Below the pieces are notes generated by a model that was not told the origin of the DNA, made no database searches, and worked only from the letters and a program-made list of their open reading frames with translations. DNA of 12,052 nt from JAUWCW01 sp030609125 [NCBI: Candidatus Rokuibacteriota bacterium]. Its GTDB lineage: Bacteria; JAUVQV01. A program made the translations under genes and the position numbers. Below, one piece after another: positions 290-12,052 of the stretch; position 1 is the first letter of the stretch, and each line of letters opens with the position of its first letter. The DNA is taken from contig JAUWCW010000027.1 in NCBI GenBank assembly GCA_030609125.1, forward strand, positions 1 through 12,052, in the 5' to 3' direction.

Positions 290-1504
290 ATGCTGAAAGG
301 CAAGGCCGTCGTCCTCGGGGTCACGGGAGGGATCGCCGCCTACAAGGCGGCCGAAATCCTCAGGGGCCTGAAGAAGAACGGGGCCGACGTGGCGGTGGTC
401 ATGACCGCCAACGCCGGGCGCTTCGTCGCTCCCCTCACCTTCGAGGCCCTGTCGGGGAGGCCCGTCTCGGTGGACCTTTTCGATCCCCCCGCACCGGGCG
501 GCATGGAGCACCTGACGCTGGCCAAATGGGCCGACCTGGTGCTGATCGCACCCGCGACGGCCAACACCATAGCCAAGCTTGCCGCCGGCCTTGCCGACGA
601 CCTGATGAGCACCCTCGCCCTGGCGACGACGGCGCCCCTGCTCATCGCTCCGGCAATGAACACGCGGATGATCCGCCACCCCGCCACGGAGGCGAACCTG
701 GCCGCGCTTGCCGGCCGGGGGGTGCACATCATCAAACCCGAAACGGGAGCCCTGGCGGAAGAAGAGGAGGGCTACGGCCGGCTCGCCTCCACCGAGTCTA
801 TCGTGAGGAGAGCCTCCGAGCTGCTCCTTCCGCGTCACGACCTGGCGGGACGCCGGCTGCTGGTTACCGCCGGCCCGACCCGGGAGGCCCTGGACCCGGT
901 TCGCTACATTTCCAACCGCTCCTCCGGGAAAATGGGGTTCGCCATCGCCGTCAGGGCGCTGAGCCGGGGAGCGGCTGTCACGCTCGTTCACGGCCCCGTC
1001 TCCCTTGAGATTCCCGCAGGCGTTCACGCCGTCGCCGTCCTGAGCGCCGGGGAGATGCAGGCCGCCGTCAAAGAGCACCTCGAGGCGAGTGACGCTGTCA
1101 TCATGACGGCCGCCGTTGCGGACTTCAGGCCCGCAGACCCCCGCCCGGGGAAAATCAAGAAGGGCGGCACGGACGGCATGGTCCTCGAGATGGAGGCCAC
1201 TCCCGACATCCTGGGCGGAATCGGACGCAACAAGGGCCGGAGGATCGTCGTCGGATTCGCCGCGGAAACGAGCGATCTTGAGAAAAACGCCCGGAAGAAA
1301 CTGGCGGAGAAGAACCTGGACCTGATCGTCGCCAACGACGTGACGGTTCCCGGCGCAGGATTCGAAAGCGACACCAACCAGGTGGAGATGTTCACCAGGA
1401 CCGGGCGGCGAATTCCCGTGCCCCTTCTCCCCAAGGAAGAGGTGGCGGAGCGGATTCTCGACCAGGTAGCGAGCCTCCTCGAGCAGGCGGAGGAGGGGGC
1501 GTGA
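290..1504 (+). CDS. coaBC: Bifunctional CoaBC: phosphopantothenoylcysteine decarboxylase / phosphopantothenate-cysteine ligase
   Basis: This cytosolic bifunctional enzyme carries out two steps of coenzyme A synthesis: joining 4'-phosphopantothenate to cysteine (CoaB) and FMN-dependent decarboxylation to 4'-phosphopantetheine (CoaC). At 404 aa it has the usual length. The N-terminal flavoprotein half shows GVTGGIAAYKA (10-20), the catalytic-type His in MEHLTLAKW (His74) and the PAMN motif (121-124). The ligase half begins near 186, with TAGPTREALDPVRYISN (193-209), SSGKMG, TAAVADFRP and a KIKK segment. ATG 290 is the only usable start after the in-frame stop at 218, although the Shine-Dalgarno sequence is weak. 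The Cys of the CoaC 'ACG..G.GRM' segment appears to be Glu here (AEEEEGYGRL, 156-165). It heads a three-gene operon and its stop overlaps the next start. Confidence 0.95.
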   Translation: MLKGKAVVLGVTGGIAAYKAAEILRGLKKNGADVAVVMTANAGRFVAPLTFEALSGRPVSVDLFDPPAPGGMEHLTLAKWADLVLIAPATANTIAKLAAGLADDLMSTLALATTAPLLIAPAMNTRMIRHPATEANLAALAGRGVHIIKPETGALAEEEEGYGRLASTESIVRRASELLLPRHDLAGRRLLVTAGPTREALDPVRYISNRSSGKMGFAIAVRALSRGAAVTLVHGPVSLEIPAGVHAVAVLSAGEMQAAVKEHLEASDAVIMTAAVADFRPADPRPGKIKKGGTDGMVLEMEATPDILGGIGRNKGRRIVVGFAAETSDLEKNARKKLAEKNLDLIVANDVTVPGAGFESDTNQVEMFTRTGRRIPVPLLPKEEVAERILDQVASLLEQAEEGA

Positions 1505-2193
1505 GCGATTCGCCGGCAGCGGAGCTCGGCCGGCTCTGCCGTCTGACGGCGTCGCTGGTCCGGGACATCACGGAGAGCCGCTGGTCGGGGATGGACCACA
1601 TCCGGGTGGAGAGCGCTGTGGCCGCTGCGCTGAAAGAGATCGCCGGCAAAGTCGCCTCCTGCCGCAAGTGCCCTCTTTGCGAGAAGAGAAAGAACACGGT
1701 CTTTGGGGAAGGGAGCCCGGCGGCAGACCTCATGTTCGTCGGGGAAGGTCCCGGCGCCGACGAGGACCGGCTGGGAAGACCGTTCGTCGGCAGGGCCGGC
1801 GGCCTCCTTGACGACATCATCAGCAAGGGAATGGGGCTTCGCCGGGAGCAAGTCTACATCGCCAACGTTGTCAAGTGCCGCCCTCCGGGGAACCGCGACC
1901 CCGAACCGGCGGAGATCGCCATGTGCGCTCCCTATCTGCACGCCCAGATCGACCTCATACAACCGAGCGTCATCGTCGCTCTCGGCAAGTTCGCCGCTCA
2001 GGTTCTTCTCGACACGGGGACGCCCATCTCGAAGCTGCGGGGGAACTGGGGCGAGTACCGCGGCGTGAGGCTCATGCCCACCTATCACCCCGGCTACCTC
2101 CTTCGCAATCCCGGGGACAAGGCCCTCGCCTGGAGGGACATCCAGGAAGTGATGTCCGTCCTCGGTCTCGAGCCCCCGGCGAGGACGCAATGA
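1501..2193 (+). CDS. Family 4 (4Fe-4S) uracil-DNA glycosylase
   Basis: This enzyme removes uracil from DNA to start base-excision repair of deaminated cytosine. The 230-aa protein has the family 4 / SPO1-polymerase-related fold: GEGPGADED (81-89), the GRPFVGRAG segment (92-100), the KCRPPGNRDP segment (125-134) and the HPGYLLR motif (196-202). Likely iron-sulfur ligands are Cys57, Cys60, Cys126 and Cys142, whose spacing agrees with what I recall of the Thermus enzyme. About 50 extra N-terminal residues precede the cluster, as in many delta-proteobacterial members. It starts at GTG 1501, overlapping the coaBC stop by 4 bp (GTGA), so translational coupling is likely. Its own stop overlaps the next start as ATGA. 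The link to its neighbours is operonic rather than metabolic. Confidence 0.92.
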   Translation: MSDSPAAELGRLCRLTASLVRDITESRWSGMDHIRVESAVAAALKEIAGKVASCRKCPLCEKRKNTVFGEGSPAADLMFVGEGPGADEDRLGRPFVGRAGGLLDDIISKGMGLRREQVYIANVVKCRPPGNRDPEPAEIAMCAPYLHAQIDLIQPSVIVALGKFAAQVLLDTGTPISKLRGNWGEYRGVRLMPTYHPGYLLRNPGDKALAWRDIQEVMSVLGLEPPARTQ

Positions 2194-3605
2194 AAGGCCG
2201 GCTTGTCTCTCTCGCCGGATCCCTCCTGGGCGTCCTCCTCCTCTCATCAGCCGTCGGAGCCGGGAGTGGGCCCCTGCGCCTGACCATCCTCTTCACCAAC
2301 GACGTCCAGGGCTACATCGAGCCCTGCGGGTGAAGCAAGAACCTGCTGGGCGGTCTTGCCCGGAGAGCCACCTTCATAGAGAAAAAGCGCTCCGAGGGAT
2401 CTCCCCTGCTGGTTTTCGACACGGGCGACATGTTCTTCAAGGACGTCTCCCAGCTGGAGCGGGAGGCGCCCCTGCTCCGGGTCCGCTCGCCGCTTGTCAT
2501 AAAGGCGCTGAACACCATGGGGTACGATGCCGCCAACGTGGGCTGGATGGACCTCATGCTGCCGGAGGAGATCCTTGACGACGCCGTTTCGGGGGCTGCC
2601 TTTCCCTTCCTCTCGGCGAACGTCCGCGACGAGTCGGGGGAGCCCCCGTACAAGCCCTACCTGATCCGGGAATTCGACGGTTTCCGGGTAGGCATCTTCG
2701 GCCTCGTCAGTCCCAGGGTCGTCGCCGGCAAGAGGTACAAGCGGGGCTCCTACCGCGTACTCGACCCTCTCGAGACCGCCCGGGAGGTGGTGGAGGAGCT
2801 CAGGCGTTCCTGTGACTTCGTCATCGCCCTCACCAGCCTCGGAGTGAAGGACGACCATGCCCTGGCGCGGTCCGTGGAAGGAATCGATGTCATCCTCGGC
2901 GGTCTGACGAAAAAAGTCATGTACACGGCGGAGGTCGAGGGCCGGACCGTCATAGCCCAGGCGGGATCGAAGGGAATGCGCATCGGCCGGCTCGAGGTTG
3001 AGATCCGGCCCGGCGGGAGCGGCCCGTGGGTCCCTCGCGGGGAGACGACGACAGAGGCGGCACGGACTTTCAGCTGGACGCCCGTCTCCCTTCAGAAGAA
3101 TATCAAGGACCACCCGGACATACTTGCTCTGCTCGAGGAGTACCGCAACACCCTCAAGGAGCAGCAGATCGCCCGTCAGGTCTCCCGGCAGCCGCTCGGA
3201 CCGCAGTCAGCGTACACAGGCATGGCGACCTGCCGGGAGTGCCACCCCCGGGAGTCTGCCCAGTGGAGCAGGAGCCCCCACGCGCACGCCTTCGTTACCC
3301 TTGTCAGGAAGAACCAGGACGGCAACCCGGACTGCCTGTCGTGCCACGTGACGGCTTTCGCTGAACCCGGGGGCTACAGGCCCGGATCGGAAGACCCGGA
3401 CCTGGCGAACGTTCAGTGCGAGGCCTGCCACGGGGCCGGAAGGTCCCATCGGGGAAGGGGACGCATCAACCTGAGGGTGCCGGAGTCGGTCTGCCGCGGC
3501 TGCCACAACATGGAAAACAGCCCCACTTTCAGGTACGAGAACTATCTGAGAAAGCTCGGAGAGCACTCCGACGGCTATTTCCGCCGCCCGCCCGCGTTAC
3601 GGTAG
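2190..3605 (+). CDS. Exported selenoprotein candidate: 5'-nucleotidase-like domain fused to tetraheme cytochrome c, read through in-frame TGA (Sec48)
   Basis: Seen: an open frame of 471 codons interrupted only by TGA at 2331-2333. Residues 1-24 form a signal peptide. A 5'-nucleotidase/UshA-like region follows (TNDVQG 36-41, LLGGLARRA just after the TGA, FDTGD 76-80, a GGLT segment near 237). The C-terminal part carries four CxxCH heme sites (348-352, 382-386, 410-414, 435-439) in a cytochrome c554-like setting with WSRSPHAHAF. The TGA gives EPCG-U-SKN where I expect Cys in relatives, and a SECIS-like hairpin follows at the fdhF spacing. The fragment after TGA, if started at ATG 2430, would have no signal peptide, yet heme c attachment requires export. 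So one read-through polypeptide makes sense. Most metal ligands of the phosphatase are replaced, so hydrolase activity is doubtful and a redox role is inferred. Start ATG 2190 overlaps the upstream stop. I recall a related family named '(seleno)protein ExtKL' in Geobacter. The alternative is a nonsense mutation or sequencing error. Confidence 0.82.
2331..2368 (+). promoter_or_regulatory. Putative bacterial SECIS element
   Basis: Directly after the TGA (2331-2333), GGGC (2348-2351) and GCCC (2358-2361) pair around a six-base loop GGUCUU (2352-2357). The stem extends through U2347-G2362 and C2346-G2363, with weaker pairs below. The GGU of the loop is the seventh codon after UGA. In E. coli fdhF, from memory, the SECIS loop AGGUCU also places GGU at the seventh codon and is likewise closed by GC/GC. 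Such an element recruits SelB with selenocysteyl-tRNA. A competing hairpin pairs GCAAGA (2335-2340) with UCUUGC (2354-2359), and there is no clear bulged U, so the fold is not certain. Confidence 0.65.
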
Positions 3606-3658: not shown

Positions 3659-3946
3659 CTAGAAATGATGGGGACGCTTGGTGACCTTCTTGAACGCTTC
3701 CTCCACCGCCTTCCTGGCTTCCTTAAGAAGAGCCGCGTCTTCTTCCTCTCCGGCCTTCTCGTGGAAACTGTAGACGTGGTAGCGCGGCTGAAGGCTGTTG
3801 AGGGCGATGGCCGCGGCATCGAGGATGCAGTCGCGACAGCGGCAGAGCGAGGAATTCTCCCCAAGATGGTGCTCGATGGCCATCCACACCTTCTCCTCGT
3901 TGCCGTTTTTCAATTCATCGATGTCATGGTAGTCGATCAATGCCAC
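3659..3946 (-). CDS. ComFB-family protein (late competence development domain)
   Basis: A 95-aa soluble protein made almost entirely of a ComFB domain. The signature is a cysteine cluster C-x-C-x2-C (Cys35, Cys37, Cys40) followed by DAAAIALNSLQPRY (43-56), matching the family's 'C-x-C..C..D..A.ALN.L.P.Y' pattern. An acidic and basic helix follows and the protein ends in RPHHF. ComFB was named from the Bacillus comF operon. More recent work describes family members as cyclic-dinucleotide (c-di-GMP) receptors, which fits the diguanylate cyclase-type genes further along this window, though a direct link is inference. The start is GTG 3946, with AAGGTGA as a good Shine-Dalgarno sequence. It begins 6 bp after the stop of the mog gene, so the two are very probably co-transcribed. 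Confidence 0.82.
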   Translation of the reverse strand: MALIDYHDIDELKNGNEEKVWMAIEHHLGENSSLCRCRDCILDAAAIALNSLQPRYHVYSFHEKAGEEEDAALLKEARKAVEEAFKKVTKRPHHF

Positions 3947-4549: not shown

Positions 4550-6142
4550 TCACAGGGCGGCGGAATCGGCTCCTTCGGGGTGGCACCTCTCGCACCGGTC
4601 AACACCGTCGATCATCCACTGCGGCGGCCTGCCGAAGCGGAATTTGTGATCGTGGATGCTGAACGAATTTCCCGAGCCGCTCACCGCAGGGGGGTGACAG
4701 TCGACGCACCCCGCCTGGCCTTCGGTGTGCTCCGCGTGCGCCTCGTAGTCTTCGAGTGTCTCCTTGTGGCAGGTGCCGCACAGCTCGCTGTCGGTGAGAG
4801 TGGCTTCCGGCTCGATCTCCCCGGCGGAGGGACGGCTGTGGCCCGTGCAGACGTCGCAGCTGACACCCTGCAGGATGTTCACCCTTCCCGCCCAGAACTC
4901 GAACTGCCTGTGCCGGTCCTCATAGCTGCCGTCCCCCTTGAAATCCTCCGCTCCCTGACCGGCCTTGGGCACCAGCCCCTGGTAGTAGCGCATCAGGTCC
5001 TCCCCGGGGCGGTACCCGACTGGATAGCGGAACTTCCCGCTCCTGTCGTGGCCGCTGGTGTGGCACGACTCGCACACCATGTCCCACCGGCTCTGCACCA
5101 GAAGTGCGGGATTGACGATGTCGAACTGGTCCGTCGATTCGGTGTGTCGCAGGCCGGGGCCGTGACAGGATTCGCATCCCGTGCCCCTCTCCATGTAAGT
5201 GCCGTCGAAGGGGTTGAGAGCTGTCGTGTGACAGCCGGCGCAGTACCGCAGCCATGAACGGCTGTATGACCCTGCGCCTGCGGCCCAGCCCTCTCCCACG
5301 ATGGACCACCTCTCGGGTCTGACCATGAGGCCCTTGCGGCCCTCAACGATATACCCCTGGACCCAGTGCTCGCCGACGGTGTAGAGGATCTTCTCAGGTG
5401 GAAAAGGCTTCTTCCCTTCGAAGCGGTCCCTGATCACCGAAGGGTCTCCGGCGGCGTCCTGGAAGTTCCGGGTGTGCAGACTCCTGCTCCACTCACTGTA
5501 GATATCGGGGTGACACCCGCGGCATCGCTCGGAGCCGACGTATTCGGGGAGCAGATCGGCCGAAAAGCTCAACTCCTCCCCGACGGCCACGCCCTGCTCG
5601 TGACAGCTGAGGCACAGCTCCCCCTTGGCGTTCGACATCCTGAGAAAGTAGGTCGGGAAGCGCTTCCGGCGGCTGATGGCGGAGCGGGCCAGCTCAACGA
5701 AGGTGGGGGGAATGAATCTCCGTTCCGCCTCGAACGGCCCGTGGGGATCGTGGCACGTGGCGCAGGTCATGGTGTGGTAATCGTCGAGGTGAAACTCCTC
5801 CGGCACCGCCGACTCGGGCCTGATCTCGACGGGGTGCTCGTCGCGGTAGTGTGCGTCCTCGTGGCAGCCCGAGCACAGGGCCACTATCTGGTCGACGAAG
5901 GTAACCGTCGTGTAGTCTTCCTTGTCCGGTTCCGGCGTCTTCCGGTGACAGGTCAGGCACTGGTCCGGGTCCGACATGAAGGCGTGGGGATTCACTCTCT
6001 CCTCCACCGCCCCTCCGGAAGCAGCGGGGGAAAAGACCGCCGCCAGGCAGAAAAGAGCCGCCGCCAGGGGTGCGGAGAGTCCGGCGGGACCACGCCGACG
6101 GCCTGCGGTGCTGCCGTGCCCGGAAAAGCGAGGGAGCGTCAT
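4550..6142 (-). CDS. Exported multiheme cytochrome c, 11 canonical CxxCH plus one atypical CxxC site
   Basis: A periplasmic or surface electron-transfer protein of 530 aa. From the ATG at 6142, an arginine-rich stretch and a hydrophobic segment (LSAPLAAALFCLAAVFSPAASG, about 22-43) form the signal peptide. Canonical heme sites in order are CLTCH, CSGCH, CATCH, CLSCH, CRGCH, CAGCH, CESCH, CESCH, CGTCH, CVDCH and CERCH. CDVCTGH (about residue 429) has the cysteines but not the adjacent His. The fifth site sits in a cytochrome c554-type block (RCRGCHPDIYSEWSRSLHTRNF) resembling the sibling cytochrome at 2190-3605. I prefer ATG 6142 over TTG 6172: the ATG has AAGG 10 nt upstream and lies 19 nt after the stop of the preceding HAMP gene, whereas the TTG overlaps that gene. 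A hairpin terminator follows the stop. The specific redox partner is unknown. Confidence 0.92.
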   Translation of the reverse strand: MTLPRFSGHGSTAGRRRGPAGLSAPLAAALFCLAAVFSPAASGGAVEERVNPHAFMSDPDQCLTCHRKTPEPDKEDYTTVTFVDQIVALCSGCHEDAHYRDEHPVEIRPESAVPEEFHLDDYHTMTCATCHDPHGPFEAERRFIPPTFVELARSAISRRKRFPTYFLRMSNAKGELCLSCHEQGVAVGEELSFSADLLPEYVGSERCRGCHPDIYSEWSRSLHTRNFQDAAGDPSVIRDRFEGKKPFPPEKILYTVGEHWVQGYIVEGRKGLMVRPERWSIVGEGWAAGAGSYSRSWLRYCAGCHTTALNPFDGTYMERGTGCESCHGPGLRHTESTDQFDIVNPALLVQSRWDMVCESCHTSGHDRSGKFRYPVGYRPGEDLMRYYQGLVPKAGQGAEDFKGDGSYEDRHRQFEFWAGRVNILQGVSCDVCTGHSRPSAGEIEPEATLTDSELCGTCHKETLEDYEAHAEHTEGQAGCVDCHPPAVSGSGNSFSIHDHKFRFGRPPQWMIDGVDRCERCHPEGADSAAL

Positions 6143-6161
6143 CGAAGGCGGACCTTCAGCT

Positions 6162-6755
6162 TCAGGTTTCAAACCACTTGACGGAGGTGGAAAGCTTCTT
6201 GCAGAGAAGATCGATGGAGCCCGTCACTTCCCTCAGTTCCTTGAGGGTCAGCTGCTCCGCGCCCGTGGCCTTGTAGCGCAGGGAAAGCACCGTGTTGTGC
6301 ACCTCCTTGCTGAGCCCCTGCATTTCGAGAATTTTGTCGCGGAACGAGGCGAGCAGGACGTCGGCCGAATCGTCCAGGGTGGATCTTTCCCACTGGGGGA
6401 CCACTCCCGCGGAAAAAGTCAGGTCCCCCCTGGAGAGCCTCTGCAGCAGCGTGTCCGCCCTCCGAATCGGCGCCGTCAGCCTCTGCGCAGCGGCCCGGAA
6501 CCCCAGCCACGTCGCCAGGGCCGCGATGACGAACCCCGTCCCTCCGGAAACGAGGGTCGCCGGCAGGAGAAGTTCCCGGGCCGTCTTTATGCTGCGGTGG
6601 GCGCTGTAAAAATCCTTCGCCAGGTCGAGATCGATGATGGTGAAAAGAGCGGCCCCGGCGGCGGCGAAGGCGACTAACTGCAGCCCTAAGACAACAAACA
6701 TCACTCTCAGGAGCCGTCTCCGGACTCTGGAGCCGCTTTTTACTTTTTCTCCCAC
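6162..6755 (-). CDS. Two-TM HAMP-domain membrane protein without an output domain
   Basis: A 197-aa inner-membrane protein. After a basic N-terminus come TM1 (about 17-41), a short periplasmic loop with DFYSAHRSIKTAREL (48-62), TM2 (about 64-86), a HAMP linker (about 87-137, with the typical PIRRADTLLQRLSRGDLTF) and a helical tail to residue 197. No kinase, GGDEF or methyl-accepting signalling module follows. So it resembles the membrane half of a chemoreceptor or sensor. The start is GTG 6755 with GGGAG 8 nt upstream. The frame stays open far upstream, but that stretch is antisense to the response regulator and not credible. It is the first gene of an operon with the multiheme cytochrome, suggesting that it anchors or senses that protein (inference). 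Confidence 0.78.
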   Translation of the reverse strand: MGEKVKSGSRVRRRLLRVMFVVLGLQLVAFAAAGAALFTIIDLDLAKDFYSAHRSIKTARELLLPATLVSGGTGFVIAALATWLGFRAAAQRLTAPIRRADTLLQRLSRGDLTFSAGVVPQWERSTLDDSADVLLASFRDKILEMQGLSKEVHNTVLSLRYKATGAEQLTLKELREVTGSIDLLCKKLSTSVKWFET

Positions 6756-6905: not shown

Positions 6906-8795
6906 TTGTCCAAAGGCAACATCCTCGTTGTTGAAAAAGACCCTTTCTACTCGTCCCTGTACCAGAAGACCCTCTCCCGCGAAGGGTATCGGGTATTCCT
7001 TGCCGAGGGAGTAAGGGAGGGCCTGGGCCTTTTCGCCGAGCGCTCCTACGACGTGGTGATCTCCGACATGGTGCTCAGGGGCGAGGACGGCCTCTCGCTG
7101 CTCCAGGGGATCAGGGAGGCCTCCCCCAGCCAGGACGTAATCATGATCACCAGCATGCAGTCCATAAAGAAGGCCGTGGAGGCCCTCAAGCTGGGCGCTT
7201 CGGACTACCTCACCAAGCCCGTCGATGCCGACGAACTGCTGCTGGTAGTCAAGAATCTCCTCCACCGGCAGAACATATCCGCCGAGCACTCCCGCCTGGT
7301 CGGTGAAAACGTACTTTTTTTCGAGCAGTTCCGGGTCCAGAAAAGAGGGCTGGAAATCCTCGCCATGCTCGACACGGACAGGATCATCGACCACCTGCTG
7401 GACATCGTCATCGAGGAGACGCGGGCGTCGGGAGCAGCCCTCTGGTTCAGCAACGAGGTGGATGGAAACTTCAGCTTCGGCGCCGGCCGCGGCACCTACG
7501 ACCCGGCGCGGGAGGAAGCGGACCGGTCGTTTCAGAAAATCTCCCTGAGGGAGCAGCTCTTTCGGGGCCGGGCCGTGCTCCGGGATGCTGAAGGAGGGCA
7601 GCACCCTGAGACGGACCTGCAGAAAATCCACTCCTTCAGGCTCCCCCTCTTTCACAACGACCAAGTCACGGGCCTCATCGCCGTCAGCCCCCGCCACGAC
7701 CACAAGCCCTACACCGACTACGACGTCAACGTGGCCCGCGTCCTTATAGAGAGCGGCGCCATCTCCCTGCGGAACGCCCGTTTCTTTGCCCTTGAATCAT
7801 CCCGGGAGCTGCGTGATCCCAGCATGGAGATTTATTCGCCCGCGTACTTTCACCAGGCGGGGATGAAGGAAGTGAATATCGCCCGAAGATACGGGCGGGA
7901 GCTGTCGTTCGTCTGTGTCGAGATCGACGGCTTCATGGAGCTGAAAAAAAAGATCAAGGAAACGCAGGCGAGACGTCTTCTGAAGGAAGTGGCGGACAAG
8001 CTCCTGGAAGTCTCGAGAGAGACGGACGTCCTTTCCATGCTGGATGAGGGATCCTTCGCGATCATCATCCCCGAAACCGACTTCTACGGCGCCCTCATGC
8101 TGATCAAACGGGTGAAGGTCGCGCTGAGAAACACCCTTTTCGCCATCGATCTCAAAAGAGAGCTTCGACTCAGCGCCTCTCTCGGTTCGGCGACCTATCC
8201 GAATGACGGCGAGCAGCTCGTCACGCTTCTGCGCTCCGCCCGCGATCGTCTCCGGAGAGACCGCTCCAGTCTGGCGAGAAAGCTGAAACTCGAGAGCCGC
8301 TCTTTCTGGAAGGCCTACGCTCACCTCATCGGGCTCGGCTCCAGGCCGGACCGGGATGCCGCCCTCACCAACTGCTATCTGACCCTGAATGATGAGGACC
8401 TGGACCGGATCCGCAATCTCTTTCTCGATGAGGCGGGCCGGCTCGGAAACCGTCGCGGACTCCTCTACGTCGGCAACCAGTCGGTGGACTCCTCCCTCTT
8501 CGATTACTCCAACTTCTCCCGTCTGGCGAACACGAAGCTGTCCGTCTTTGCCCTGGGAGCACGGAGCGAGGGCTCCTGGAGCCACCCCGAGATCATGCCG
8601 GTCTACCTCGACGACCGCAACATACGCACTCACCGCTTCCTCCTCTGCATCGCCGAGTCCTTCTACTATACGTTTCTGTGCCGGCCGGAGGCCGAGGGGA
8701 GCTGGCGGGTTTTCCACTCCGCCGACCCCCACATAACCCATGAAATGATAGGGAAGCTGCAGGAGCGCTATCTTCTGCAGCAGCGGATCGGGTGA
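6906..8795 (+). CDS. Response regulator: REC-GAF-degenerate GGDEF with uncharacterised C-terminal domain
   Basis: A 629-aa cytosolic signalling protein. REC domain (1-120): acceptor Asp54 in VISDMVL and Lys104 in LTKP are present, so it can probably be phosphorylated. A GAF-like sensor follows (about 145-295, ending with DVNVARVLIESGAISLRNA). A GGDEF-fold region follows (about 330-450, with LSFVCVEIDGFMEL and LSASLGSATYPNDG), but the active-site signature GG[DE]EF reads LDEGSF (379-384), so cyclase activity should be absent. Residues 465-629 form a domain I do not recognise, with short beta-rich segments (LLYVGNQSVDSSLFDY, EIMPVYLDDRN). The start is TTG 6906, with GAGG 7 nt upstream. The stop overlaps the next gene as TGATG, so the two are coupled. 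It is divergent from the HAMP-cytochrome operon. Confidence 0.85.
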   Translation: MSKGNILVVEKDPFYSSLYQKTLSREGYRVFLAEGVREGLGLFAERSYDVVISDMVLRGEDGLSLLQGIREASPSQDVIMITSMQSIKKAVEALKLGASDYLTKPVDADELLLVVKNLLHRQNISAEHSRLVGENVLFFEQFRVQKRGLEILAMLDTDRIIDHLLDIVIEETRASGAALWFSNEVDGNFSFGAGRGTYDPAREEADRSFQKISLREQLFRGRAVLRDAEGGQHPETDLQKIHSFRLPLFHNDQVTGLIAVSPRHDHKPYTDYDVNVARVLIESGAISLRNARFFALESSRELRDPSMEIYSPAYFHQAGMKEVNIARRYGRELSFVCVEIDGFMELKKKIKETQARRLLKEVADKLLEVSRETDVLSMLDEGSFAIIIPETDFYGALMLIKRVKVALRNTLFAIDLKRELRLSASLGSATYPNDGEQLVTLLRSARDRLRRDRSSLARKLKLESRSFWKAYAHLIGLGSRPDRDAALTNCYLTLNDEDLDRIRNLFLDEAGRLGNRRGLLYVGNQSVDSSLFDYSNFSRLANTKLSVFALGARSEGSWSHPEIMPVYLDDRNIRTHRFLLCIAESFYYTFLCRPEAEGSWRVFHSADPHITHEMIGKLQERYLLQQRIG

Positions 8796-10336
8796 TGGCC
8801 GAGAGCGCCGGGAAAGGCAAGCGGTTCATCCTTGTCGTCGACAACGACATGGCCGTCCTGAAGCAGGTGGAAAACACTCTCCGGCGGAACGATTACGAGG
8901 TCCACCTCGCCACCGACGGGGCCCTGGCGATCAACCGGGCCCTCGCCTCTCCCCCGGAGGTCGTGATCTCTGCCGTCGAGATGCCCCTTCTCGACGGCTT
9001 CAAGCTCTGCCAGCTCCTCAGGACCAACCCCATAACACGTGACATCCCTTTCGTCTTTCTCACCAGCAAGGAGACGAGCCCCCAGCGTCTCGGGCAGTAC
9101 CTCCGGCCCTTCGACGAGTTCCTCCTCAAGCCTTTCAAGGAAGAAGAGCTCCTGGGACGGATAACCGGACTGCTGATGAGGATGGAGAAAGTCGAGGAAG
9201 TGGCCGTCGGCGAGAAGGCCCTTCTCGGGACGCTCTCCGAGATCACCCTCATGGACCTTCTTCAGATCCTGCGCATGAACCGCCGCTCGGGATTTCTCGA
9301 CCTCGAGCAGGAAGGCCGCCTGGCAACGGTCTTTATCCGCGAGGGGGAGGTGGTCAACGCCAAGCTGGGCAAATTCAAGGGCGAGAAGGCCTTCTTCAGG
9401 CTCCTCGACTGGAACAGGGGCAAGTTTGAGTTCCGGCCCCAGGCGGTGGAGACGGAAGTCCTCATCGAGCGGCCGGGGGAGAACCTCATCCTGGAGGGCC
9501 TTCGCCAGCTCGACGAGGTGAACAAGATCAAGGAGACTCTCTTCGCCGGAGGCAGACGCCTGGAGTTGGTCAAGCACTTCCAGGGCCCCCCTGAAAAGCT
9601 TCGACCCGTCACGCGGGAGGTCATCAAGCTCCTCGACTACTTCTCAGGTCTCGAAGACATCATGGACCAGAGTTCCTTCAACGATCTCGAGATCTGCCAG
9701 ACCCTCCAGGTGCTCATAGAAAAAGAGATCATCGATGTCTCCGCGGGAGTCGCCGAGGGCGAGGAGGCTCTCGAGACTCCCCTTCTCTCTCTCGAGGAAG
9801 CCCTGAAATTGAGCTATCAGCTCGGCATCGGCCGCGAGGAGACATCTCAGGCCTCGACGGGAAAACTCCTCCTCTTCACCAGCGAACGGAAGCTGCTGAA
9901 ACAGCTCCTTGAAGGGCTGTCACGGCATAAGGAGTTCAAGATCGACGCCGGGATCGTTCTCGACCCGGCAGCGAAGTCGATTCCTCTGGGTGGCATCGGC
10001 ACGGTCCAGATCCTGGAGGGCACGGACCTGAGCCTCTACTCTTTTCCCAGCGAAGCGTCCTATCAGCCTCTCTGGGAGCCCCTCTCACAGGGATCGCTCG
10101 GGAACCTGATCCTTCTCGGGGAGGGGAATTCGGCGGAGGACGCTGCCCGCTTCTGCGACAACGTCCTTCGTCAGCCCTTTCTCCTCTGCGGCCCCGGCAG
10201 GCCGGAAGGAGTGGAGAAGGCCGCACTGGGGTGGGAACCCTCCGTCCCCTGGAACTCCATCCCCCTGGGGGACGGCAGGGATGACGGCTACCGGCAGGTC
10301 TTCCGCGCCCTCTTTTCTCTTATCCTGAACAAGTAG
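8795..10336 (+). CDS. Pseudo-receiver-PATAN (DUF4388) protein with GTPase-like C-terminal region
   Basis: 513 aa, cytosolic. The receiver domain (10-130) keeps the acidic pair (VVDND, 14-18) and Lys112 (LLKPF), but the phospho-acceptor position is Ala60 (VISAVEMP), so phosphorylation is not expected. Residues 140-250 form a PATAN/DUF4388 domain (LLGTLSEITLMDLLQILRM, SGFLDLEQEG, FIREGEVVNAKLG, KGEKAFFRLLDWNRGKFEF), a scaffold-type module common in delta-proteobacteria and cyanobacteria. A helical stretch (255-315) follows. Residues 355-513 recall MglA/COG2229-type small GTPases (ILEGTDLSLYSFPSE then FQPLW-like ASYQPLWEPLSQGSLGNLILL), yet no P-loop is visible. That assignment is tentative. ATG 8795 overlaps the upstream stop; GTG 8792 is the alternative start. 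The protein probably acts by binding partners of the preceding response regulator. Confidence 0.85.
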   Translation: MAESAGKGKRFILVVDNDMAVLKQVENTLRRNDYEVHLATDGALAINRALASPPEVVISAVEMPLLDGFKLCQLLRTNPITRDIPFVFLTSKETSPQRLGQYLRPFDEFLLKPFKEEELLGRITGLLMRMEKVEEVAVGEKALLGTLSEITLMDLLQILRMNRRSGFLDLEQEGRLATVFIREGEVVNAKLGKFKGEKAFFRLLDWNRGKFEFRPQAVETEVLIERPGENLILEGLRQLDEVNKIKETLFAGGRRLELVKHFQGPPEKLRPVTREVIKLLDYFSGLEDIMDQSSFNDLEICQTLQVLIEKEIIDVSAGVAEGEEALETPLLSLEEALKLSYQLGIGREETSQASTGKLLLFTSERKLLKQLLEGLSRHKEFKIDAGIVLDPAAKSIPLGGIGTVQILEGTDLSLYSFPSEASYQPLWEPLSQGSLGNLILLGEGNSAEDAARFCDNVLRQPFLLCGPGRPEGVEKAALGWEPSVPWNSIPLGDGRDDGYRQVFRALFSLILNK

Positions 10337-10345
10337 GTTCCGCGG

Positions 10346-10669
10346 TCACCCTTTCCGGTCCTTCTTCCGCGAGGGCTCCCATCCGGTCATCCGCTTGTAC
10401 TCCTCCACCACTGCCTCCCGGATCTGTTTCCGCACGTCCCGGTTGAGAGGAACGACAAGATCGACGAACCTCTCCCGCCGCGCCCTCTGCGAGGGAAAGC
10501 CGATAAAGAGCCCCTGCTTCTCCGATTCGAGGATGCGGATGCCCCGCAACAGAAGGGCGTCTGCGATTTCGATCTCGGCGTAGGCCACCGTCCGCCCTCC
10601 GGTCTCCCTCGTGTCGAAGGGATAGACTCTCACGGCGGTGATGCTCAGCGTCTTAGGTTCGGATGACAT
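10346..10669 (-). CDS. spoVG: SpoVG family protein
   Basis: A 107-aa protein matching SpoVG throughout: SITAVRVYPF (9-18), AYAEIEIADALLLRGIRILESEKQGLFIGFPS (29-60), then DLVVPLNRDVRKQIREAVVEEYKRM. SpoVG proteins are small nucleic-acid-binding regulators. In Bacillus they affect septation and sporulation, but homologues are widespread in non-sporulating bacteria, including delta-proteobacteria and spirochaetes, so sporulation is not implied here. I start at ATG 10669, where family similarity begins. It overlaps the upstream diguanylate cyclase gene by 17 bp. A longer version from 10711 adds a Gly/Pro-rich lead with no family match. Its stop faces the PATAN gene's stop across 9 bp with no visible terminator. 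The target is unknown. Confidence 0.9.
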   Translation of the reverse strand: MSSEPKTLSITAVRVYPFDTRETGGRTVAYAEIEIADALLLRGIRILESEKQGLFIGFPSQRARRERFVDLVVPLNRDVRKQIREAVVEEYKRMTGWEPSRKKDRKG

Positions 10670-12052
10670 CTTTGAAGGTCCTGTGCCGGTTCCGCCCGGA
10701 CTCCTTGGCAAGGTAGAGCGCCTGGTCCGCGTGACGGACCAGGTCCTCCTTGCCCTCCCCGTCCTCCGGGAAGACGGAGGAGCCGATGCTGATGGTCACC
10801 GAAAGGGTCTTGTGTTCGTGCTCGAAGGTGAGGGCCCTTATCGACTTGAGAACCCGCTCGGCCATGTTCCCGCACCCCCGCCGGGCCGTGCCCGGGAGGA
10901 TGATGGCAAATTCCTCCCCCCCGTACCGCGCCACGAAGTCTATGCTCCTGGCAATCCCGGCGAGCTGCCGGGACACTTCCTTGAGGACCACGTCGCCGAA
11001 GGGGTGGCCGCAGGTGTCGTTGAGCTTCTTGAAGTGATCGATGTCGAGAAGCAGAAGGGAGAGGTGCTGGTTGTGCCGCTCCGCCCTCTGCAGCTCGTGG
11101 TCGAGCCTCTCCTGGAAGTGCCGGTGGTTGTAAAGACCGGTGAGCCCGTCGGTGAGAGCCATCTTCTCCACCTGGCGGTGAAGGATGGCGTTGGAGATCT
11201 GTGCCGCCGCCTGGTTGGCAAGAAGCTGGAGTGTCTCCAGGTGATAGTGGGTGAAGTGGGCGGCCTTGGCGGAGGCGAAGATTATCGTCCCTTCCAGCTC
11301 GTCGCGGAACCGGAGGGGGAGGCCCAGGAAGGAGCGCATCTTCTCGAGCCCGGTGTACCCCGGGATGATCTCCATCTTCTTGCGGTCGGAGAACACCAGG
11401 GGCTGCCCGTGATTGACGATATAGGAGACGAGGCAGTTCTTCTTCAGGGGGAATGAGACCGCCGAGGGGGACTCGAAACGGAAGCCGCGCTGCGTCTGCA
11501 GAACGAGGCGCCGCCGTTCAGGGTCGACGAAGAAGACGGCACACTGATCGTACGGTATCACCACGTTGATGCCGTCCACCAGGCTCTCGAGCATCTTGTC
11601 CGCCTCCAGCGTCATGCTGAGGCTGTTGCTCAGGGCATTGAGGGTCTCCAGCGTCATCTTGCGCCGGTCCCTCAGGGAGCTTTCGCGGAAGTTTTCCAGG
11701 AGAAGATTTACTTCGAGAGCAAAACCCTCGAACACCTCGAGTTCGCTCTTCGAGAACCTGTCGGCCGCGGGATGGTCGGCCACGAGGACACCGCGCAGAA
11801 CCTCCTGCTCCTTGACGGGAACGACCATGGGCGACGAGGAATCCCTGCCTTCAACGGTGAAGTTCACTCGGTGGCGGCCCTTTTCCACGTTCGAAAGCAT
11901 GAGGGCCGCCCCGTGCCTGGCTGATCCCCCGACGATTCCCTCCCCCACCCGGAAGTTCGCCTCCTCGTCGATCTTCACTCCCTCCGCCGCCGCCCGCCGG
12001 TGGAAGAACCTGTTGCCGTCCCTCTGAAAGTAGATGGCGGCCCGGGCCCCCA
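10653..12052 (-). CDS. Diguanylate cyclase, GAF-GAF-GGDEF (5' end beyond window)
   Basis: The visible 465 codons run off the window edge. The frame stays open to 12052, and the last residues (GARAAIYFQRDG...) already belong to a GAF domain, so GTG 11978 is not the true start. Order: the end of a first GAF (to about 11700), a helix, a second GAF (about 11610-11200, with CAVFFVDPERRRLVL and FLGLPLRFRDELEGTI), then a full GGDEF domain. The signature GGEEF is at 10908-10922, with ALTDGLTGLYNHRHF, LLLLDIDHFKKLND and SVTISIGSS all intact. An inhibitory-site R-x-x-D (RSID) lies five residues before GGEEF. It should therefore make c-di-GMP from GTP with product feedback, controlled by whatever the GAF domains bind. 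It overlaps the start of spoVG by 17 bp, implying one transcript. Confidence 0.93.
   Translation of the reverse strand, partial: GARAAIYFQRDGNRFFHRRAAAEGVKIDEEANFRVGEGIVGGSARHGAALMLSNVEKGRHRVNFTVEGRDSSSPMVVPVKEQEVLRGVLVADHPAADRFSKSELEVFEGFALEVNLLLENFRESSLRDRRKMTLETLNALSNSLSMTLEADKMLESLVDGINVVIPYDQCAVFFVDPERRRLVLQTQRGFRFESPSAVSFPLKKNCLVSYIVNHGQPLVFSDRKKMEIIPGYTGLEKMRSFLGLPLRFRDELEGTIIFASAKAAHFTHYHLETLQLLANQAAAQISNAILHRQVEKMALTDGLTGLYNHRHFQERLDHELQRAERHNQHLSLLLLDIDHFKKLNDTCGHPFGDVVLKEVSRQLAGIARSIDFVARYGGEEFAIILPGTARRGCGNMAERVLKSIRALTFEHEHKTLSVTISIGSSVFPEDGEGKEDLVRHADQALYLAKESGRNRHRTFKDVIRT

What the first reader, a model, noticed from the sequence alone, without database searches (positions are those of the whole stretch)
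2190..3605. Selenocysteine in a periplasmic metallophosphatase-fold / tetraheme cytochrome fusion
A single in-frame TGA (2331-2333) divides an otherwise continuous gene. Before it lie a signal peptide and the first phosphatase motif (TNDVQG). After it come the conserved GGLARRA segment, FDTGD and four CxxCH sites. The TGA gives C-G-U (46-48), a CxU redox-type motif where I expect Cys-Gly-Cys in relatives. Without read-through the heme part would have no export signal and could not receive heme. Standard annotation would produce a 47-aa peptide and a truncated cytochrome from ATG 2430. I recall NCBI naming a Geobacter family '(seleno)protein ExtKL'. If this is that family, the selenoprotein type is known and this is a new genomic setting (coaBC-udg operon). 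If not, it is a new selenoprotein.
Basis: partly seen in the sequence, partly recalled or inferred. Interest (0 to 1): 0.9.

Follow-up and report, generated by a model that had tools for sequence, protein, structure and literature searches.

The report
UshA-like selenoprotein fused to tetraheme cytochrome
The in-frame stop codon very probably encodes selenocysteine, but the gene belongs to an already catalogued bacterial selenoprotein family, so it is a well-supported new member in a thinly sampled lineage rather than a new kind of protein.

Summary
ORF 2190-3605 is open except for TGA 2331-2333, read as Sec48 in P-C-G-U. The read-through product scores 355.6 bits (cut-off 275) against NCBIfam NF041198 "UshA-like (seleno)protein", whose profile also spans the heme part. 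It is not ExtKL, the recalled family. The genome has selA, selB, selD and tRNA-Sec. The one other genome held from its phylum has the same TGA. All 111 relatives aligned have Cys or Sec at this column: Sec in 23 of 31 family-search loci; the other 80 come from a Cys-favouring scan. A SECIS-like hairpin follows the TGA; its GGTC loop goes with a GGT Gly codon in 23 of 24 Sec genes against 0 of 8 Cys genes of the same search. Beyond the catalogue entry: the UshA metal site is mostly lost (2 of 8 residues here, at most 5 in relatives), while PCG(C/U), four CxxCH and two more His are invariant. Most likely a periplasmic Cys/Sec-heme redox enzyme on a vacated phosphatase fold; substrate unknown.

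The parts
290..1504 (+). coaBC, upstream neighbour
   Evidence: TIGR00521 471.6 bits, cut-off 219.7
1501..2193 (+). family-4 uracil-DNA glycosylase, directly upstream; its stop overlaps the ATG at 2190 (ATGA)
   Evidence: TIGR00758 210.7 bits, cut-off 125.3; sequence
2181..2184 (+). GAGG, possible ribosome-binding site 5 nt before the ATG
   Evidence: sequence; inference
2190..3605 (+). UshA-like PCGU selenoprotein gene, 471 aa with U48
   Evidence: NF041198 355.6 bits
2190..2264 (+). N-terminal signal peptide (approximate end)
   Evidence: read from sequence: basic start, hydrophobic core; no predictor run. Helix 5-21 in the model
2280..3017 (+). UshA/5'-nucleotidase-fold domain (residues 31-276), metal site degenerate
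   Evidence: no Pfam metallophosphatase hit at E 0.001
2322..2333 (+). P45-C46-G47-U48 motif
   Evidence: P, C, G and C/U in 111 of 111 relatives, 80 of them from a scan that favours PCGC
2331..2333 (+). TGA read as selenocysteine
   Evidence: Sec machinery
2346..2363 (+). SECIS-like hairpin: 6-bp stem 2346-2351/2358-2363, loop GGTCTT 2352-2357
3231..3245 (+). heme site 1, C348-x-x-C351-H352
   Evidence: 111 of 111 relatives
3279..3281 (+). invariant H364, candidate distal heme ligand (inferred)
   Evidence: 111 of 111
3333..3347 (+). heme site 2, C382-x-x-C385-H386
   Evidence: 111 of 111
3417..3431 (+). heme site 3, C410-x-x-C413-H414
   Evidence: 111 of 111
3447..3449 (+). invariant H420, candidate distal heme ligand (inferred)
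   Evidence: 111 of 111
3492..3506 (+). heme site 4, C435-x-x-C438-H439
   Evidence: 111 of 111
3659..3946 (-). ComFB-like protein, convergent downstream neighbour, also next to the gene in G001
   Evidence: PF10719 60.5 bits; like start inside the ORF at L030:29-721 (by eye)

Best explanation
The gene encodes an exported selenoprotein of the UshA_like_PCGU family. Shown by sequence: the UGA at codon 48 is followed by a bacterial SECIS-like hairpin, the genome encodes SelA, SelB, SelD and tRNA-Sec, and relatives carry Cys or Sec at exactly this column. Inferred: SelB inserts Sec at the UGA; the full 471-aa chain is exported and receives four c-type hemes in the periplasm; the UshA fold has given up its dinuclear metal phosphatase site and now holds a Cys46-Gly-Sec48 redox pair. 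That pair does two-electron chemistry on a small substrate or thiol, and the cytochrome-c554-like tetraheme tail passes the electrons on one at a time to or from other periplasmic cytochromes, for example the protein with 11 CxxCH encoded at 4550-6172. My likelihoods: Sec insertion 0.95; loss of phosphatase chemistry 0.8; Cys/Sec-heme redox enzyme 0.6. Substrate and direction of electron flow are unknown. The confidence below is for the whole, Sec insertion weighing most.
For: NF041198 match over both domains, above cut-off. selB 314.5 bits (profile 2-399 of 581), selA 593.4, selD 362.8 with one in-frame TGA, tRNA-Sec 67.9 bits, all over cut-off; ARAGORN: tRNA-Sec, anticodon tca. Same TGA in G001, 50% identity. 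PCG[C/U] in 111 of 111 relatives; Sec in 23 of the 31 from family searches, Cys in 8. GGTCT at +22 to +26 in 23 of 24 Sec genes; Gly codon GGT in 23 of 24 Sec genes, 0 of 8 Cys genes, 13 of 79 scan Cys genes. 0.43% of 20,000 synonymous recodings of the window peptide give GGTC with a stem of at least 6 bp. Metal-site residues kept: UshA-like control L031 8 of 8, window 2 of 8, relatives 0 to 3 (one row 5). Four CxxCH, H364 and H420 in 111 of 111. Fold: 1ush Z 33.2, rmsd 2.1, 282 aligned. Tail: cytochrome c554 1bvb, E 1e-26 with the A2 profile.
Against: The fold of 53 nt from the TGA is no more stable than shuffles (z -0.14); Rfam has no match at gathering score. The minimum-energy fold of 51 nt draws the hairpin in 15 of 24 Sec genes, the window among them but not G001; 23 of 24 when +13 to +36 is folded alone. 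Contiguous stem is only 3 bp in 6 of 24 and 0 in one row with N. 80 of the 111 relatives come from a scan one of whose two patterns demands PCGC, and the 30 are the top scorers. Rows are related, so codon counts are not independent events. The PMC2398784 discussion sets UshA-like apart from families with Cys-based redox motifs (passage), though its table gives CxU. D38 and D80 are kept, so some metal binding is possible. No model coordinates were available, so no Sec-heme distance was measured. No expression or mass data.
Confidence: 0.8

Rival explanations
1. Cys46 and Sec48 do not shuttle electrons but bind something, a metal or a sulfane sulfur/persulfide, as a sulfur-handling cousin of SoxB, with the hemes accepting electrons from the bound sulfur compound.
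For: SoxB is the second-best NCBIfam hit (88 bits) and a structural neighbour (2wdc Z 31.1, rmsd 3.2, 302 aligned). CxU can ligate soft metals or carry persulfide (general knowledge, recalled).
Against: The SoxB score is far below its cut-off of 550. The window neighbours (coaBC, udg, comFB, molybdopterin-binding protein, multiheme cytochrome) show no sulfur-oxidation gene. Sox genes were not sought elsewhere in the genome.
Confidence: 0.2
2. A working UshA-type phosphatase or nucleotidase whose Cys/Sec and hemes are accessory.
For: Clear UshA/CD73 fold. D38 and D80 of the metal site are kept. Relatives have His at column 216 in 62 of 111 and at column 239 in 35 of 111.
Against: The N116 column is N in 0 of 111 relatives and W here; the H117 column is H in 4 of 111 and M here; the window keeps 2 of 8 site residues.
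Confidence: 0.08
3. The TGA is a true stop, a sequencing error or a pseudogene lesion.
For: Assembly of 376 contigs with unknown read support; TGA is the stop of udg next to it.
Against: Same TGA codon in G001 and in 22 of the 30 loci taken, GGT constraint downstream, full Sec machinery, no other stop in the frame.
Confidence: 0.03

Closest known systems
NCBIfam NF041198 UshA_like_PCGU, 'UshA-like (seleno)protein' (UshA-like, COG0737, CxU in PMC2398784, PMC9312934, PMC13188914; passages seen)
   Same: Score above curated cut-off, CxU motif, both parts of the profile matched
   Different: From a phylum with two genomes held here; udg-ushA-comFB neighbourhood
NF040886 ExtKL multiheme c-type cytochrome (seleno)protein
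   Same: Also a heme-bearing selenoprotein family
   Different: Not hit by P0001 at E 0.001; no hit over cut-off in the genome
NF049981 UshA-like (seleno)protein family 2 (CxxU in PMC13188914)
   Same: Related sequence, E 4.7e-22
   Different: 78.7 bits, below its cut-off 140; CxxU, not CxU
E. coli UshA / CD73 5'-nucleotidases (1ush)
   Same: Fold of the N-terminal part
   Different: Metal and catalytic residues mostly lost; a cytochrome domain follows
Cytochrome c554 (1bvb, PF13435)
   Same: Tetraheme tail: Pfam 58.4 bits, cut-off 20.8; PDB hit 1e-26 with the A2 profile
   Different: Fused to a Sec-bearing UshA-like domain

Membership tests
NF041198 UshA_like_PCGU | HMM score over the curated cut-off of 275 bits | tested here: met
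   355.6 bits
NF041198 UshA_like_PCGU | P-C-G-(U/C) motif | tested here: met
   PCGU at residues 45-48; PCG[C/U] in 111 of 111 relatives
NF041198 UshA_like_PCGU | UshA-like part plus C-terminal heme part within the profile | tested here: met
   profile positions 20-270 and 341-519 matched in one frame
Bacterial selenoprotein gene | selA, selB, selD and tRNA-Sec in the genome | tested here: met
Bacterial selenoprotein gene | bSECIS: upper stem 4-16 bp, loop 3-9 nt, G in the first two loop positions, 16-37 nt from UGA (figure-legend passage of PMC13188914; the passage was cut after its third rule) | tested here: met
   6-bp stem, loop GGTCTT, 18 nt after UGA
Bacterial selenoprotein gene | Sec in the protein shown by mass or selenium label | not testable with these tools
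   needs experiment
NF040886 ExtKL | HMM score over cut-off 250 | tested here: not met
   not among the 16 NCBIfam hits of P0001 at E 0.001
UshA 5'-nucleotidase (function) | Dinuclear metal ligands and catalytic His | tested here: not met
   2 of 8 residues kept; UshA-like control L031 keeps 8 of 8; residue numbers recalled
Cytochrome c554 / c-prime (PF13435) | Pfam score over gathering 20.8; four CxxCH | tested here: met
   58.4 bits; four CxxCH

The most novel reading that the evidence does not exclude
The whole 'UshA-like' PCG(C/U)-tetraheme family, seen here with Cys in Planctomycetota and Poribacteria and with Sec in Myxococcota-side genomes and in this phylum, is not a phosphatase family at all but a class of periplasmic Cys/Sec-heme oxidoreductases built on a mostly metal-free calcineurin-like fold, so that its database name misleads about its chemistry.
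Probability: 0.55. Interest if true: 0.5.

Novelty: new member of a known kind. Interest (0 to 1): 0.3.

Why it matters
It confirms by separate tests (Sec/Cys exchange at one column, SECIS codon constraint, machinery) a selenoprotein that standard gene calling would cut in two, in a lineage with few genomes. It also shows that what the family keeps is the Cys/Sec pair and the hemes, not the phosphatase metal site. That gives a concrete, testable chemistry to a family for which the passages I saw name no function beyond the UshA label.

Tried and rejected
Rejected: ExtKL membership; working nucleotidase; true stop or error. TGA as Trp rejected by inference: the column is Cys in the 88 relatives without TGA. 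Rfam gave nothing on the window at gathering score, and the 53-nt fold was not better than shuffles; the synonymous-recoding control is the better test. The viral-contig scan found no relative. The search in the phylum of G003 (genome of L057, titled Omnitrophica) gave 0 of 285 genomes over cut-off, 124 of 285 with some match. Gene context in ten regions (my own simple gene caller, neighbours not scanned against families) showed by eye tsaD- and ksgA-like starts beside several copies: housekeeping, no functional clue. The tree used 59 of 112 rows (window, 31 family-search loci, every third of the 80 scan loci). Paper searches for a function of this family: listings only, plus passages of PMC9312934, PMC2398784 and PMC13188914; no paper was read whole. 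The UshA residue numbers (D41, H43, D84, N116, H117, H217, H252, Q254) are recalled, from no call.

Full report
Observation. The frame 2190-3605 has a single internal stop, TGA 2331-2333. The ATG at 2190 overlaps the stop of a family-4 uracil-DNA glycosylase gene, itself after coaBC. Read through, the 471-aa product has a signal-like N-terminus (no predictor run), PCGU at 45-48 and four CxxCH.

Known family. NCBIfam NF041198 'UshA_like_PCGU' scores 355.6 bits against a curated cut-off of 275, and its profile covers both the UshA-like part (positions 20-270) and the heme part (341-519) in this frame. Pfam gives Cytochrome_C554 for the tail and no metallophosphatase hit at E 0.001. The family is in print as UshA-like, COG0737, CxU: passages seen in PMC2398784 (2008), PMC9312934 (2022) and PMC13188914 (2026). 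The 2008 discussion sets UshA-like apart from families with Cys-based redox motifs.

Machinery. In the window's own genome (completeness 92.38) selB 314.5 bits (profile 2-399 of 581), selA 593.4, selD 362.8 with one in-frame TGA, and tRNA-Sec 67.9 bits are over their cut-offs; ARAGORN gives tRNA-Sec, anticodon tca.

Relatives. One other genome of the order or phylum is held. It has the same gene with the same TGA, 50% identical, beside udg-like and ComFB-like genes recognised by eye. The cytochrome at window 4550-6172 is also shared: 54% identical over 495 columns to L201:7063-8712, each with 11 CxxCH. A family search of 377 genomes in the phylum of G002 (genome of L074, titled Myxococcales) gave some match in 371 and a match over cut-off in 22, of which 19 have one TGA inside and 3 none; of the 30 top-scoring loci taken, 22 have TGA and 8 have Cys at this column. 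One of its two patterns demands PCGC, so these are biased to Cys, and Sec forms in those phyla were not sought. Over all 111 relatives (31 + 80) P45, C46, G47 and C/U48 are invariant.

SECIS. Eighteen bases after the TGA a 6-bp stem carries the loop GGTCTT, within the bacterial limits quoted in a passage of PMC13188914. GGTCT sits at +22 to +26 in 23 of 24 Sec genes. The Gly codon involved is GGT in 23 of 24 Sec genes, in 0 of 8 Cys genes and in 13 of 79 scan Cys genes; GGT is 14% of 1263 Gly codons in the 23 Sec genes other than the window's. Of 20,000 synonymous recodings of the window peptide, 6.4% give GGTC and 0.43% give it with at least 6 bp. Against: the 53-nt fold is no better than shuffles; the 51-nt minimum-energy fold draws the hairpin in 15 of 24 Sec genes, not in G001's, though 23 of 24 draw it when +13 to +36 is folded alone; the contiguous stem is 3 bp in 6 rows and 0 in one row with N; the rows are related.

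Chemistry. The model (pLDDT 84.1, pTM 0.85) matches E. coli UshA (1ush, Z 33.2, rmsd 2.1, 282 aligned), and the A2 profile matches cytochrome c554 (1bvb, E 1e-26). An ordinary UshA-like protein of the related genome (L031) keeps 8 of 8 metal and catalytic residues; the window keeps 2; relatives keep 0 (26 rows), 1 (28), 2 (20), 3 (36) or 5 (1). By contrast PCG(C/U), the Cys and His of four CxxCH, H364 and H420 are kept in 111 of 111. I infer that the phosphatase site was given up and that Cys46/Sec48 work with the hemes as a periplasmic redox enzyme. What it reduces or oxidises is unknown, and the neighbourhoods look like housekeeping.

Origin of Sec. In a tree of 59 of 112 rows the window and G001 pair (100/99) inside a clade of 34 rows that also holds the 30 loci, L120 and L084 (100/99). 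They lie beside, not within, the Sec clade of 22 (100/96). Two label changes are needed; a single origin is not ruled out.

Verdict. A well-supported selenoprotein and a new member of a known family. What is left of interest is the function that the conservation suggests.

Noticed in passing
window 4550-6172 (-): Multiheme cytochrome with 11 CxxCH, 54% identical to L201:7063-8712 (also 11) in the related genome; both also share a CDVC site without His directly after it.
   Followed up: partly
L010 (G000:C159:5730-6647): selD match with one in-frame TGA: selenophosphate synthetase looks like a selenoprotein itself.
   Followed up: no
window 6906-10336: Two adjacent response-regulator proteins (one with GGDEF, one with DUF4388) whose ORFs overlap by four bases.
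   Followed up: no
window 10346-10711 (-): SpoVG-like protein; a similar start is seen at L201:1732-2046 in the related genome (by eye).
   Followed up: partly
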